A stretch of 64,000 nt of DNA from Anaerolineales bacterium (GTDB lineage: Bacteria; Chloroflexota; Anaerolineae; Anaerolineales; UBA11579). Positions 28,760-60,454 of this stretch are shown here, in pieces. The notes under the pieces were generated by a model, which saw nothing but the letters and a program-made list of their open reading frames with translations, searched no databases and was not told the origin of the DNA. Position 1 is the stretch's first letter. Every line of letters starts with the position of its first letter. The DNA is taken from positions 310,001 to 374,000 of the forward strand of contig JAHBVC010000001.1 of assembly GCA_019637755.1 (NCBI GenBank), in the 5' to 3' direction. The position numbers were made by a program, and so were the translations under genes.

Positions 28760-28771
28760 CTAGTTTATCAT
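28760..28771 (-). other. Possible three-codon leader ORF (M-I-N-stop)
   Basis: In the predicted E1 leader, ATG ATA AAC TAG follows AGGTGAGGGG by two bases. That purine stretch (28774-28783) could act as a ribosome-binding site and is complementary to the loop and 3' arm of the upstream hairpin. It may be a mini-ORF or chance. Confidence 0.3.
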
Positions 28772-28799
28772 AGCCCCTCACCTGCCCTTTTAAAGCGAC

Positions 28800-28832
28800 A
28801 AACGCCTAGGTGAGGGGGGCACCCAGGCGCTT
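28800..28832 (-). promoter_or_regulatory. C-loop hairpin in the 5' leader of the E1 dehydrogenase gene
   Basis: On the minus strand, AAGCGCCT (28832-28825) pairs fully with AGGCGTTT (28807-28800), one G-T pair included. It is capped by GGTG, CCCCCCT, CACC. The same cap tops two hairpins at 35,651-35,788. The downstream AGGTGAGGGG (28783-28774) is complementary to CCCCTCACCT of the cap, so two exclusive folds are possible. Confidence 0.55.
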
Positions 28833-28842
28833 ATCGATTGCA

Positions 28843-28870
28843 AGTATAGCGACTGGGGTGCTAATGTCAA
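28843..28870 (-). promoter_or_regulatory. Sigma-70-type promoter for the E1 dehydrogenase gene
   Basis: On the minus strand, TTGACA (28870-28865) and TATACT (28848-28843) are separated by 16 bp. The predicted transcript starts near 28836, giving a leader of about 107 nt that begins with the C-loop hairpin. No gene occupies 28,729-28,944. Confidence 0.6.
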
Positions 28871-34196: not shown

Positions 34197-35438
34197 CTAG
34201 CCGCGGGCAGCCAAGCGCTTGCGCAGCCGCGGCGACTGCACGCGGCTGGCATCCAGCCCGCCCGCGCCCAAAAAGCGCACGAAGCGGGCAAAGCCCTGCG
34301 CCAGGGCATCGCCAAAGTCTGCATTCTGCGCCAATGCTTCGTTCTCGAGCCATAAGCCAAGAATGTGATAGCGGTTGGCGCTACGATCCAGCTTGCTGTC
34401 AAAGCGCCCCACCAACTGATCGCCCCACAAGATCGGCAAGGTGTAGTAGCCATATTTGCGCTGCGGCTCCGGCTTGTACACCTCCCACACATAATCAAAG
34501 TCAAATAAGAGTTTGGCGCGGCCGCGGGCACTGACGGGTTCCAGCGGCGCCAGGAAGGTCACTTCCTCCTGGGTGCTGGGGCCGCGCGGCGCCCAGGCCG
34601 TGGGCACGCGCCCGGCAGCCAGGGTTTGCAAAAGCTTGCGGTCGCGGCCCACAGCACAGTAGATATGCTTCCAGCCCTCCACTTGCACTTCAATCAGCTC
34701 CCCCTTGGCCAGCATATCGCCAACGATCTGCTGAGCCTTCTCCGTGGGCACGCCACGAAAGAACACATCGGCGGTGCGGTTGAGGCGCGTCAGGCCGTTG
34801 AAGCGCACCTCTTTGAGGAAAAGGAAACGGTCGGTATCCGCATCGCTGGCCTCATAGATCAGCTCGGCGGGCGCCACGGCTTCCGTGAGGGCATAGACGC
34901 GCTCGAAGTTCTCGCGATGATGGGTCATCACTTCGCCGGTGCGCCAAAGGTAGTACAGCGCCACCGCGCTGTCTTTGCGGCCACGGTAGCTTTCGGTGCG
35001 CTGGCGCTCGGCCATCTTGAAATCACGATTGCTCAGCGTGCCGCGCTGGCGCAGCAGTTGGCGCATCTCGGCGATGGCCGCGGCGTGCTCGTGTGCGCTG
35101 CTGCGCAGGCGTTGCGCTTCCTCGCGCTCGCGCCGCATGACCACGCGCCAGTACGGCAGCTCATCCATCGGGCGCACGGCCAACCAGCCGCCCCAATCGA
35201 AGAATTTGCGCTGCTGGTAGGTGGGGCGCTCCCAGTCACCCGGGCGGTACTCCAGCACGCGGCCGTGCAGCTTGATATCCTGGCTGCGGGCGATGATCTG
35301 CAGCGGATCGAGCTGCAGATACTCCATGGCACGCATGGCCTGCTGTGTGCCGCGGGCGCCCTGCCAGCGGCGCCCCGGCCACAGGCCTTGCTTACCGAGA
35401 ATGTAGCGGCGCGCGGTTTGCGCGTCAATGTGAAGCAT
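34197..35438 (-). CDS. Winged-helix DNA glycosylase of the YcaQ/AlkX (HTH_42) family
   Basis: A 413-aa cytoplasmic protein. The N-terminal wHTH region holds RAMEYLQLDPLQIIARSQDI, with the Q-hydrophobic-D arrangement of AlkX/YcaQ-type glycosylases that remove alkylated or crosslinked bases. Later motifs (FDWGGWLAVRPMDELPYWR, YGYYTLPILWGDQLVGRFD) are typical of the family. It is the last chromosomal gene before the tRNA-Arg/prophage junction, and overlaps nothing. Confidence 0.85.
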   Translation of the reverse strand: MLHIDAQTARRYILGKQGLWPGRRWQGARGTQQAMRAMEYLQLDPLQIIARSQDIKLHGRVLEYRPGDWERPTYQQRKFFDWGGWLAVRPMDELPYWRVVMRREREEAQRLRSSAHEHAAAIAEMRQLLRQRGTLSNRDFKMAERQRTESYRGRKDSAVALYYLWRTGEVMTHHRENFERVYALTEAVAPAELIYEASDADTDRFLFLKEVRFNGLTRLNRTADVFFRGVPTEKAQQIVGDMLAKGELIEVQVEGWKHIYCAVGRDRKLLQTLAAGRVPTAWAPRGPSTQEEVTFLAPLEPVSARGRAKLLFDFDYVWEVYKPEPQRKYGYYTLPILWGDQLVGRFDSKLDRSANRYHILGLWLENEALAQNADFGDALAQGFARFVRFLGAGGLDASRVQSPRLRKRLAARG

Positions 35439-35501
35439 GGCGCCTATTTTACATAGATAGTTGATCAGGGCAGGAGCAATGCAGCCGGCGTGGGGGTAAA
35501 C

Positions 35502-35529
35502 AAAAATCCCCGTAGCTACGGGGATTTTT
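35502..35529. terminator. Bidirectional terminator next to the tRNA-Arg remnant
   Basis: A 28-bp perfect palindrome: five A, TCCCCGTAGC, its complement, five T. It lies 2 bp past the tRNA 3' end and would terminate the minus-strand tRNA gene, which supports this side being original chromosome. Confidence 0.85.
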
Positions 35530-35531
35530 TG

Positions 35532-35571
35532 TGGCGAGAGTGAGATTCGAACTCACGACCAAGGGCTTAGA
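35532..35571 (-). other. Prophage attachment site: 3' half of tRNA-Arg(TCT)
   Basis: On the minus strand the 40 nt read as anticodon TCT, AA, stem GCCCT, variable TGGTC, T-arm GTGAG-TTCGAAT-CTCAC, acceptor TCTCGCC and discriminator A. The base before the anticodon is C, not the obligatory U33, and no 5' half (GGCGAGA) follows, so the gene is cut there. This is the classic scar of tyrosine-integrase insertion into a tRNA gene. Nested inverted repeats AGAGTGAG/CTCACTCT (35537-35544, 35588-35595) and GAACTC/GAGTTC (35549-35554, 35570-35575) flank the junction. The restored tRNA should lie at the other prophage end. Confidence 0.75.
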
Positions 35572-35616
35572 GTTCGACCTTGACAGACTCACTCTAAAAA
35601 TAACCAGAAACAACTG

Positions 35617-35640
35617 AGACACCTGACTAGGTGTCTTTTT
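35617..35640 (+). terminator. Rho-independent terminator at the prophage left end
   Basis: AGACACCT, GACT, AGGTGTCT followed by a T run to 35642. It acts on the plus strand and separates the att region from the hairpin/tRNA region. Confidence 0.8.
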
Positions 35641-35650
35641 TATTTCGTTA

Positions 35651-35788
35651 CAGACATCCAAGTCAGCTCCTGCAGCGGGTGCCCCCCCTCACCTGTTGCA
35701 GGGCTGATCTGGGCGTCTGTGCACACGAATGTCGATCCAGCGGCGCGGGGTGCCCCCCTCACCTCGTGTCGCTGGATGGGCGTTCGTG
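35651..35788 (+). ncRNA. Candidate structured RNA: two tandem C-loop hairpins
   Basis: Hairpin 1 (35651-35719): CAGAC/GTCTG, TCAGC/GCTGA, CCTGCA/TGCAGG, then GGTG, seven C plus T, CACC. Hairpin 2 (35724-35788): CACGAA/TTCGTG, ATCCAGCG/CGCTGGAT, then GGTG, six C plus T, CACC. The stems differ in sequence yet pair throughout; the caps are the same. No ORF fits here. The plus strand is favoured because the region sits between a plus-strand terminator and plus-strand tRNA genes. The C-rich loops could pair with Shine-Dalgarno sequences. GCGC-TCA-GCGC and a pyrimidine-rich tract follow (about 35,792-35,822). Confidence 0.5.
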
Positions 35789-35829
35789 GCAAGCGCTCAG
35801 CGCAGTTTCTTCTTTCTCCTTCGGTTGAC

Positions 35830-35856
35830 CCCTGGCTGAGCCAATGCCAGCCAGGG
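35830..35856 (+). other. Hairpin 4 bp before the phage tRNA-Met
   Basis: CCCTGGCTG and CAGCCAGGG form 9 bp around a 9-nt loop. It ends three bases before the tRNA 5' end and may belong to a common precursor with the tRNAs. Confidence 0.5.
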
Positions 35857-35859
35857 CAC

Positions 35860-35931
35860 AGCGCGGTAGAGCAGCGGCAGCTCGCCAGGCTCATAACCTG
35901 GAGGCCGGTGGTTCAAATCCACCCCGCGCTA
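35860..35931 (+). tRNA. tRNA-Met(CAT), phage-borne
   Basis: Acceptor AGCGCGG/CCGCGCT, D-arm GAGC/GCTC, anticodon arm CCAGG-CTCATAA-CCTGG with anticodon CAT, T-arm GGTGG-TTCAAAT-CCACC, discriminator A. CCA is not encoded. The 1-72 pair is A-U and the anticodon stem lacks three consecutive G-C pairs, so it is an elongator (or Ile2-type CAU) rather than an initiator. Confidence 0.9.
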
Positions 35932-36007
35932 CAAAAACCTTTTGTGAAGGCGACACCTGCCAGGAAGCGCAAGCAGTGGCGTGACGGCTCGGAGAGACGA
36001 GCACATC

Positions 36008-36081
36008 GGGATGGTAGCTCAACCGGATAGAGCAGGCGCCAGATAAGCGTCAGGTTGCTGGTTCAAATCCAGCCCATCCCA
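36008..36081 (+). tRNA. tRNA-Ile(GAT), phage-borne, with A at position 33
   Basis: Acceptor GGGATGG/CCATCCC, D-arm GCTC/GAGC, anticodon stem GGCGC/GCGTC, T-arm GCTGG-TTCAAAT-CCAGC, discriminator A, no encoded CCA. The seven-base loop reads CAGATAA, so the anticodon is GAT, but position 33 is A instead of the near-universal U. Confidence 0.85.
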
Positions 36082-36083
36082 CT

Positions 36084-36132
36084 TTTACGCAGGCCGCTAG
36101 ATCCTGCGTAAACCAGGCGGCCAGGCGCCTGG
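36084..36132. repeat. Two adjacent inverted repeats after the tRNAs
   Basis: TTTACGCAGG (36084-36093) pairs with CCTGCGTAAA (36103-36112), ten perfect base pairs directly after tRNA-Ile. It is followed at once by CCAGGCG/CGCCTGG (about 36,113-36,132). They may end the tRNA transcript or serve as operators for the early operon; there is no T run. Bases 36,133-36,201 hold only the SD of the next gene. Confidence 0.5.
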
Positions 36133-36201
36133 ATCACCACCGACACCAAATGCAGGCTGGCGGCACCTGGCGGCCGCCGGCCAAGTGGGAAGGGGCATCG
36201 C

Positions 36202-36579
36202 ATGGCTGCCAAGAACCTCAACGACAGCATCAAACACTTCTTGCTGCTCATCCTGGCGGAGCACCTCGGTCACGAGAACCGCATCAAGCGCTCTGTTCTC
36301 AAAGAGGAGCTATGCCTGCGCCTGGGTGCCAATGTCAGCGACCGCAAGATGCGCGACATGCTTGAGGAGCTGCGCAACGAAGAGCGCGGTTGCTGGATCT
36401 GTGGCTCGCTGAAATCGGGCTACTTCGCCGCCAAAGACGAGGCCGAACTACGCGCCCACCTGGCCAAAGACAAGATGCGTATCGCCAACATCGCGCGCCG
36501 CGTGCGCAACCAAGAAACACATGCGGGGCTGCAATCCCCCGATCAAATCCGCATGGAAGACCTGCTGGCCTCAGCATGA
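36202..36579 (+). CDS. Phage early protein, winged-helix-like
   Basis: A 125-aa basic helical protein, the first gene of the plus-strand early operon. RIKRSVLKEELCLRLGANVSDRKMRDMLEEL looks like a winged-helix segment, so DNA binding is plausible. GCWICGS contains a CxxC, but no second pair is visible. SD GGAAGGGG precedes ATG 36202. The function is not recognised. Confidence 0.65.
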   Translation: MAAKNLNDSIKHFLLLILAEHLGHENRIKRSVLKEELCLRLGANVSDRKMRDMLEELRNEERGCWICGSLKSGYFAAKDEAELRAHLAKDKMRIANIARRVRNQETHAGLQSPDQIRMEDLLASA

Positions 36580-36608
36580 TCAACCGCCCACTACACCACG
36601 AGGACGAT

Positions 36609-36734
36609 ATGGAGCAAGAAAAGCAAGACAGCCAACTACGCCCTATCGGCGCCAAGAAAGCACACATCTACTTCATTGGCGCATTACTGTTCGTCGTCTG
36701 CTATATGGCCTTGGCCCTGGGATTGTTGCGATGA
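36609..36734 (+). CDS. Small phage membrane protein (41 aa)
   Basis: A charged N-terminus is followed by one transmembrane helix (AHIYFIGALLFVVCYMALAL). SD GAGG at about 36,600-36,603 supports ATG 36609. The stop overlaps the next start (ATGA). Confidence 0.6.
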   Translation: MEQEKQDSQLRPIGAKKAHIYFIGALLFVVCYMALALGLLR

Positions 36735-37051
36735 CTGGCAAAAGCCCAAACCCTGAGCGTGTTCATAAGCGCAAGCAGGCCATCTTGCAGCTTTTGCGCC
36801 ACAACCAGTCAAAGGGGCTTCCCCCGCCAAGCATCCGCGAGTTTGCTAAGGCGGCTGGCATCTCGTCAACCTGTGTGACGAGGTGCTACCTGCACAAAAT
36901 GGCGGCTGAGGGGCTAATCACCACCACACCCGGCATCTCCCGCGGAACTGTCCTGGCGCAGACAATCCAAGAACAGGCCATCGTGCGCATTCCCCTTCGC
37001 GGCATTCTGCGCGACCACCGCATCGTGTGGGTTTCGCCGGAGGACGAGTGA
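36731..37051 (+). CDS. LexA-DNA-binding-domain-like HTH regulator
   Basis: A 106-aa protein. RKQAILQLLRHNQSKGLPPPSIREFAKAAGISSTCVTRCYLHKMAAEGLI matches the LexA-type winged helix (residues about 12-62). There is no peptidase domain; the C-terminus is a short beta-rich tail (VRIPLRGILRDHRIVWVSPEDE) resembling the LexA linker. It may regulate early transcription. The start is coupled to the upstream membrane protein by ATGA. Confidence 0.7.
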   Translation: MTGKSPNPERVHKRKQAILQLLRHNQSKGLPPPSIREFAKAAGISSTCVTRCYLHKMAAEGLITTTPGISRGTVLAQTIQEQAIVRIPLRGILRDHRIVWVSPEDE

Positions 37052-60343: not shown

Positions 60344-60454
60344 TCCTGTGTCTCCTGGGAGCTAGCGCTCCGATATCCATCTAGCCGTTTTAGGTGGTCG
60401 GCGTCACCCGATGGCTGGCTGCTTTTACGCCTGCCAGGCTGGCGAAATTGGAAA

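What the first reader, a model, noticed from the sequence alone, without database searches (positions are those of the whole stretch)
35651..35788. Two tandem hairpins with an invariant C-rich cap and divergent stems, at the prophage end
Seen: hairpins 1 and 2 share the cap GGTG, 6-7 C plus T, CACC. Their stems (CCTGCA/TGCAGG with CAGAC/GTCTG; ATCCAGCG/CGCTGGAT with CACGAA/TTCGTG) are unrelated in sequence yet fully complementary, and similar internal loops separate outer and inner stems. A third copy of the cap sits at 28,800-28,832 on another stem. Conserved loop with compensating stems is what selection on RNA structure looks like. No gene covers the region. Known background: C-rich sRNA loops can pair with Shine-Dalgarno sequences. 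Inference: a small structured RNA, expressed with or beside the phage tRNAs, that acts on G-rich ribosome-binding sites or recruits a protein.
Basis: partly seen in the sequence, partly recalled or inferred. Interest (0 to 1): 0.85.

Follow-up and report, generated by a model that had tools for sequence, protein, structure and literature searches.

The report
C-loop small RNA of Anaerolineales
The two hairpins belong to a previously undescribed family of tiny structured RNAs with an invariant CCCCCCU loop, found almost throughout one order of Chloroflexota bacteria (Anaerolineales) and in phages, where many copies look switched by the bacterial DNA-damage repressor; the loop probably pairs with G-rich start sites of messenger RNAs.

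Summary
H1 (35651-35719) and H2 (35720-35791) fold with z = -10.7. Their cap is the invariant core of an RNA family absent from Rfam. The 'third copy' (28792-28836, minus strand) is a canonical gene: strong promoter, 12-bp stem starting at the predicted transcription start, GGGUG-CCCCCCU-CACC cap, UUUA tail. In 63 host and 31 phage copies the stems show massive compensatory change under an unchanging loop. The covariance model hits 94 of 108 good genomes of the order and nothing convincing elsewhere in the phylum. Tandem copies have their own promoters and 31 of 76 downstream genes point the other way, so this is a discrete, probably trans-acting small RNA. Phage copies sit mainly between terminase and portal genes; 23 of 40 phage promoters carry the LexA box found at host lexA genes (0 of 76 host copies do). 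In one phage clade the loop is perfectly complementary to the G-tract before a terminase-small-subunit gene. Best reading: antisense control of G-rich start sites, working like actinobacterial 6C/B11 RNA but not a member. H1/H2 are long prophage variants without a visible promoter; their expression and strand are unproven.

The parts
35651..35719 (+). H1: long hairpin with cap GGTG-CCCCCCCT-CACC (cap 35678-35693)
   Evidence: fold -103.3 kcal/mol for H1+H2, z -10.7; weak family match at 35668-35707, E 0.0087 in the window
35720..35791 (+). H2: long hairpin with cap GGTG-CCCCCCT-CACC (cap 35749-35763)
   Evidence: fold; family model match at 35736-35777, E 7.4e-07 in the window
28792..28836 (-). 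canonical host copy of the C-loop small RNA (stem, cap, stem, U-rich tail)
   Evidence: family model 63.9 bits, E 5.4e-17; same place beside the E1 dehydrogenase/transketolase gene in other genomes of the genus and family
28843..28870 (-). promoter of the canonical copy: TTGACA (28865-28870), 16 nt, TATACT (28843-28848)
   Evidence: sequence; promoters precede 59 of 76 host copies against 2 of 447 control stretches
35616..35640 (+). intrinsic-terminator-like hairpin just upstream of H1, also present before the hairpin of the related prophage L089
35530..35577 (-). 3' part of a tRNA gene, the likely prophage attachment site (inference)
   Evidence: sequence; sub-threshold Rfam match to a stretch that holds a tRNA end, 35532-35570
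35860..35932 (+). tRNA-Met(CAT) downstream of H2
36008..36082 (+). tRNA-Ile(GAT)
36521..37051 (+). prophage gene with a LexA-type DNA-binding domain
   Evidence: PF01726 E 1.4e-07; PHROG transcriptional repressor

Best explanation
A new small-RNA family of Anaerolineales and phages. Shown by sequence: a hairpin with an invariant UG-CCCCCCU-CA core on a freely covarying stem, behind its own promoter so that the predicted transcript begins at the first base of the stem, mostly intergenic and often in tandem; phage copies sit largely between terminase and portal genes, and over half of their promoters carry a LexA-type operator. Inferred: the exposed loop base-pairs in trans with G-tracts (AGGGGGG) in start regions of messenger RNAs and blocks ribosome binding, as shown elsewhere for 6C/B11. 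Host copies are probably constitutive; LexA-box phage copies would be made on DNA damage or prophage induction. H1/H2 are prophage derivatives that keep the loop on longer stems, probably within a longer transcript that includes the phage tRNAs.
For: Covariation: 12 of 13 variable pairs with changes on both sides, 193 compensatory cells against 41 +/- 8, 0 of 500 shuffles; repeated on 31 phage copies, 74 against 25 +/- 4. The helix next to the loop is also exchanged as pairs (CTTG/CAAG, CCTG/CAGG, GAGTG/CACTT) while the loop is kept. Fixed -10 to cap distance of 18-19 nt in most copies; promoters 59 of 76 against 2 of 447. Distribution: 155 of 201 genomes of the order. Independent genes: tandem copies with own promoters, 31 of 76 downstream genes on the other strand. 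LexA box in 23 of 40 phage promoters, shuffled mean 0.44, same box at 18 of 19 host lexA genes. Target lead: AGGGGGG in the SD position of a terminase-small-subunit gene in 18 phage contigs, 16 of which carry the hairpin; isolated-strand pairing -17.4 kcal/mol against -12.6 for an anti-SD tail.
Against: No transcript data. G-tract start sites are not enriched in the window's genus and no conserved host target was found. The terminase leader is known from one phage clade only, so its complementarity counts as one event. H1/H2 have no promoter on either strand.
Confidence: 0.58

Rival explanations
1. The RNA is a decoy or recruitment site: a host RNA-binding protein recognises the UG-CCCCCCU-CA hairpin loop, and host, phage and prophage copies titrate or deliver it.
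For: The loop and the two pairs below it are kept over a whole order while targets are not apparent; tandem copies and phage copies fit a dose-dependent decoy; H1/H2 keep the loop on another scaffold.
Against: No partner known; a bare C-run is simple for a protein site; perfect complementarity to the phage terminase leader would be coincidence.
Confidence: 0.22
2. The hairpin is a 5'-terminal leader element that stabilises or regulates the mRNA of the next gene in cis.
For: The hairpin is at the predicted 5' end and a same-strand gene often follows within 150 nt; one site is syntenic in the genus beside the 795-aa E1 dehydrogenase gene.
Against: 31 of 76 downstream genes lie on the opposite strand; separate terminators follow 23 of 80 copies against 5 of 80 control stretches; tandem copies have their own promoters; in phages a second promoter often follows.
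Confidence: 0.1
3. H1/H2 act from the other strand: minus-strand transcripts would expose G-rich loops (GGUGAGGGGGGCACC) that pair with and silence the host C-loop RNA, a prophage sponge.
For: No plus-strand promoter for H1/H2; the reverse complement is a perfect loop complement of the host RNA.
Against: No minus-strand promoter either; the tRNAs behind H2 are on the plus strand; the family cap has its C side on the plus strand, as in phage copies with promoters.
Confidence: 0.05
4. A DNA-level element: a mobile palindromic repeat, an operator, or a phage replication or packaging site.
For: H1/H2 lie next to a prophage end and phage copies lie near terminase genes.
Against: Stem sequences differ while pairing is kept, G-U pairs included, which a double-stranded DNA operator or a recently copied repeat would not show; copies stand at a fixed distance behind a promoter.
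Confidence: 0.04

Closest known systems
6C RNA (Rfam RF01066; B11 in mycobacteria)
   Same: Hairpin loops with runs of 6-7 C; in M. abscessus the C-loops pair with a G-tract in the eccB4 5' UTR and repress it, shown by compensatory mutations (PMC10470900). H1+H2 in tandem even resemble its two C-loops.
   Different: 6C is one RNA with two C-loop hairpins in Actinobacteria; here the usual unit is a single hairpin at the 5' end, with a different closing sequence, in Anaerolineales and phages. The 6C model does not match the copies.
Sibling C-rich small RNAs of Firmicutes (LhrC of Listeria, csRNAs of streptococci; from own knowledge)
   Same: Short RNAs in several copies, some in tandem with own promoters, with C-rich single-stranded stretches complementary to Shine-Dalgarno regions.
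   Different: Different sequence, structure and phylum; not compared by a model here.
LexA-controlled phage genes of the GAAC-N4-GTTC type (own knowledge; as in Bacillus)
   Same: GAAC-N4-GTTC box between -35 and -10, as at the host lexA genes.
   Different: Here the controlled product would be a small RNA inside the late gene region of the phage.

Membership tests
6C RNA (RF01066) | match to the family covariance model at its gathering score | tested here: not met
   No 6C hit among matches up to E 10 at 35401-36200 or up to E 1 in seven family loci; 0 of 21 related genomes over the cut-off and none for the window's genome
6C RNA (RF01066) | two stem-loops in one RNA, each with a run of at least six C | tested here: not met
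   Canonical copies have one hairpin, with tandem copies each behind its own promoter; only H1+H2 form a pair, and whether they share a transcript is unknown
6C RNA (RF01066) | occurs in Actinobacteria | tested here: not met
   55 genome stretches, all titled Chloroflexi/Anaerolineales and relatives except one probably mis-binned contig
6C RNA (RF01066), way of working | C-loop represses mRNAs through G-tracts at ribosome-binding sites | tested here: inconclusive
   Perfect complement in the terminase leader of one phage clade, no enrichment in the host genus; needs a reporter test
LexA regulon (phage copies) | LexA operator of the host overlapping the promoter | tested here: met
   23 of 40 phage promoters with at most one mismatch, shuffled mean 0.44, maximum 4; the box stands before 18 of 19 host lexA genes
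LexA regulon (phage copies) | LexA binding and induction by DNA damage | not testable with these tools
   needs gel shift and mitomycin C induction

The most novel reading that the evidence does not exclude
A bacterial order and its phages share one antisense RNA. The phage version is released by LexA on DNA damage and, with the host's constitutive copies, silences translation of the phage terminase small subunit (and other G-tract leaders), so that DNA packaging is timed by, or exposed to, a host-encoded RNA; H1/H2 are a prophage's own altered copies.
Probability: 0.22. Interest if true: 0.85.

Novelty: new variant of a known kind. Interest (0 to 1): 0.74.

Why it matters
It appears to be one of the most widely kept small RNAs of a large, little-studied bacterial order, missing from Rfam release 15. 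Phages carry it under what looks like the host's SOS operator, beside the packaging genes, which makes the question of how phages use host-type small RNAs directly testable. It would also be an independent case, in another phylum, of the 6C/B11 principle that a bare C-run in a hairpin loop is a sufficient regulator.

Tried and rejected
1) Cis leader: rejected as the general rule because 31 of 76 downstream genes face the other way and tandem copies have own promoters. 2) 6C membership: the model does not match. 3) DNA operator or repeat: compensatory change. 4) A small ORF starting at the GTG of the cap: considered by eye; 7-C copies shift the frame and the stem covaries without a codon pattern. 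5) G-rich start sites as general host targets: AGGGGGG-N-ATG 59 against 59 reversed in the genus (my sums); TGAGGGGGG-N-ATG 51 against 29 over 21 genomes (my sums), which a plain SD effect can explain; the fetched host loci gave no recurring gene except one small membrane protein seen twice. 6) Hits in three genomes of other classes are unrelated hairpins without the loop. 7) INPHARED phages similar to 35600-36120: only the tRNA-Met part matches in the rows listed. 8) Caps not preceded by G, and 7-C caps, in viral contigs: mostly chance (3 of 39 and 0 of 7 with at least 10 of 12 stem pairs), a useful control for the GGGTG set (43 of 57). 9) The whole genome was not available as a file, so no genome-wide target scan was made. 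10) Literature searches found no description, but the library holds only open papers.

Full report
Observation. Both hairpins exist as described. The 150 bases from 35651 fold into H1 (69 nt) and H2 (72 nt) at -103.3 kcal/mol, more than ten standard deviations below shuffled sequence. The cap is GGTG-C7T-CACC in H1 and GGTG-C6T-CACC in H2; a third copy lies on the minus strand at 28809-28823. Rfam has no match at any of them.

From two hairpins to a family. A scan of 60 relatives with a cap pattern found it in 46 of 61 genomes, mostly as exactly GGTGCCCCCCTCACC, while the reversed pattern is rare. I fetched 73 regions. Read side by side they show one arrangement: a TTGACA/TATAAT-type promoter, a 12-bp stem, the cap, the complementary stem, then ATTTAA or a similar U-rich tail. 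The distance from the -10 hexamer to the cap is 18-19 nt in most copies, so the predicted transcript starts at the first base of the stem. Promoters with at least 9 of 12 consensus letters precede 59 of 76 distinct host copies but only 2 of 447 control stretches.

Structure under selection. In 63 distinct host copies (A1), 12 of 13 variable pairs show changes on both sides, with 193 compensatory cells against 41 expected from shuffles; sliding the partner by one to three columns destroys the signal. An independent set of 31 phage copies gives the same. The helix next to the loop is invariant in these two sets by construction of the search, but other searches show that it too is exchanged as pairs: CTTG/CAAG, CCTG/CAGG and GAGTG/CACTT. 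What stays is UG-CCCCCCU-CA. A fixed loop on an exchangeable stem suggests that the loop is the working part.

Distribution. The covariance model hits 155 of 201 genomes of the order, 94 of 108 good ones. In the phylum sample it hits 24 of 25 same-order genomes and none of the other orders of the class that are listed; three weak hits in other classes are unrelated hairpins. A promoter-plus-cap scan of one genome for each of 84,980 species returned 55 stretches, titled Anaerolineales, Anaerolineae, Anaerolineaceae, Levilinea, Bellilinea, Leptolinea, Anaerolinea or Chloroflexi/Chloroflexota, plus one short 'Rhodobacteraceae' MAG contig that is probably a binning error. That the order is Anaerolineales is an inference from these titles.

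Discrete RNA genes. Most host copies are intergenic; 31 of 76 downstream genes lie on the opposite strand (my count). Two or three copies in a row, about 140-190 bp apart, each have a promoter (L084, L115, L111, L113, L080, L062). A separate intrinsic terminator follows within 180 nt in 23 of 80 copies against 5 of 80 control stretches. This is the anatomy of trans-acting sibling small RNAs.

Phage copies. The 16-letter cap occurs in 57 stretches of IMG/VR contigs; 43 have at least 10 of 12 stem pairs, against 3 of 39 for caps not preceded by G. Terminase-large genes are upstream neighbours in 27 and portal genes downstream neighbours in 17 (families checked on representatives). Of 40 distinct phage promoters, 23 contain GAAC-N4-GTTC with at most one mismatch (shuffled mean 0.44), against 0 of 76 host promoters. 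The same box stands upstream of 18 of 19 host lexA genes. So many phage copies are very likely repressed by LexA and released by DNA damage (inferred from the operator).

Candidate target. In 18 phage contigs (two further pattern hits are unrelated sequence) a P27-type terminase-small-subunit gene has the leader TTAGGCAGGGGGGGTAGGCG followed by the start codon. Sixteen of these contigs also carry the C-loop hairpin: 13 with the exact cap and 3 with the CCTG/CAGG form. The two without are contigs of 6.4 and 5.7 kb. The AGGGGGG tract sits where the Shine-Dalgarno sequence should be and is a perfect complement of the loop; as isolated strands the loop binds it at -17.4 kcal/mol, an anti-SD tail at -12.6, and a standard SD is bound by the loop at only -5.9. 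This is one clade, so it is a good lead, not proof. In the window's genus G-tract start sites are not enriched, and I found no conserved host target.

H1 and H2. They lie just inside a prophage. The left end is marked by a tRNA 3' fragment near 35530-35577; tape measure, head, scaffold and minor head genes lie at 52-63 kb, and a LexA-domain gene lies at 36521-37051. A related prophage in G008 (L089, 71% identity over 1 kb) has one such hairpin at the same place, again just behind a terminator, with the same cap but a different stem. A third long version (L097 in G004) also lies beside tRNA genes. These long versions lack the family promoter (for H1/H2), so their expression, and even their strand, is open. 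They are best read as prophage derivatives that keep the loop.

Comparison. The nearest known RNA is 6C/B11 of Actinobacteria, whose C-loops repress an mRNA with a G-tract in the 5' UTR (PMC10470900). The present RNA plausibly works like it but fails its model and its taxonomic range; I do not file it there. It is an unlisted family and a new variant of the C-loop antisense principle, with a phage branch that looks SOS-controlled.

What is shown and what is inferred. Shown from sequence: structure, covariation, promoters, distribution, phage position, LexA box, complementarity. Inferred: transcription, length, pairing in vivo, SOS induction, any effect on packaging, and any function of H1/H2.

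Noticed in passing
L171:1493-1572 (+), L178:3446-3526 (-), L193:4434-4512 (+) and about 14 other viral loci: Directly behind the phage C-hairpin, mostly behind a second promoter, lies another conserved structured RNA (GCAGTCCTGGTGTAGACCGGGAC...GTCGGA..GATGC) that ends in a strong terminator; 13 of 17 predicted pairs covary and Rfam has no match. In L182 and L205 it seems to share a transcript with the C-hairpin.
   Followed up: partly
window 60382-60444 (-): Rfam GP20-b RNA match (38.2 bits, E 8.8e-05) in the prophage head region, next to the scaffold gene.
   Followed up: no
L223-L241 (host lexA loci): The host lexA genes of the order carry GAAC-N4-GTTC in the promoter region (18 of 19), which defines the probable SOS box of Anaerolineales.
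   Followed up: yes
L418, L432 (genomes G001 and G007): A small membrane protein gene (MEQxLYWLxGxLGVPLVNWLK...) has AGGGGGG in start position in two genomes of the genus; a possible further target, perhaps of prophage origin.
   Followed up: no
window 28766-28785 (-): GGTGAGGGG just downstream of the canonical copy is a 9-nt complement of its cap, in front of the next gene's promoter; related genomes keep a G-run there but not the exact match.
   Followed up: partly
L255 (JALWPC010000230.1): A 6.1-kb contig binned as Rhodobacteraceae carries a canonical copy; probably a mis-binned Anaerolineales piece.
   Followed up: no
L089:3000-3250: After the prophage hairpin of G008 come further strong hairpins, one with loop ATTACCCC; perhaps a multi-hairpin RNA at the prophage end.
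   Followed up: no
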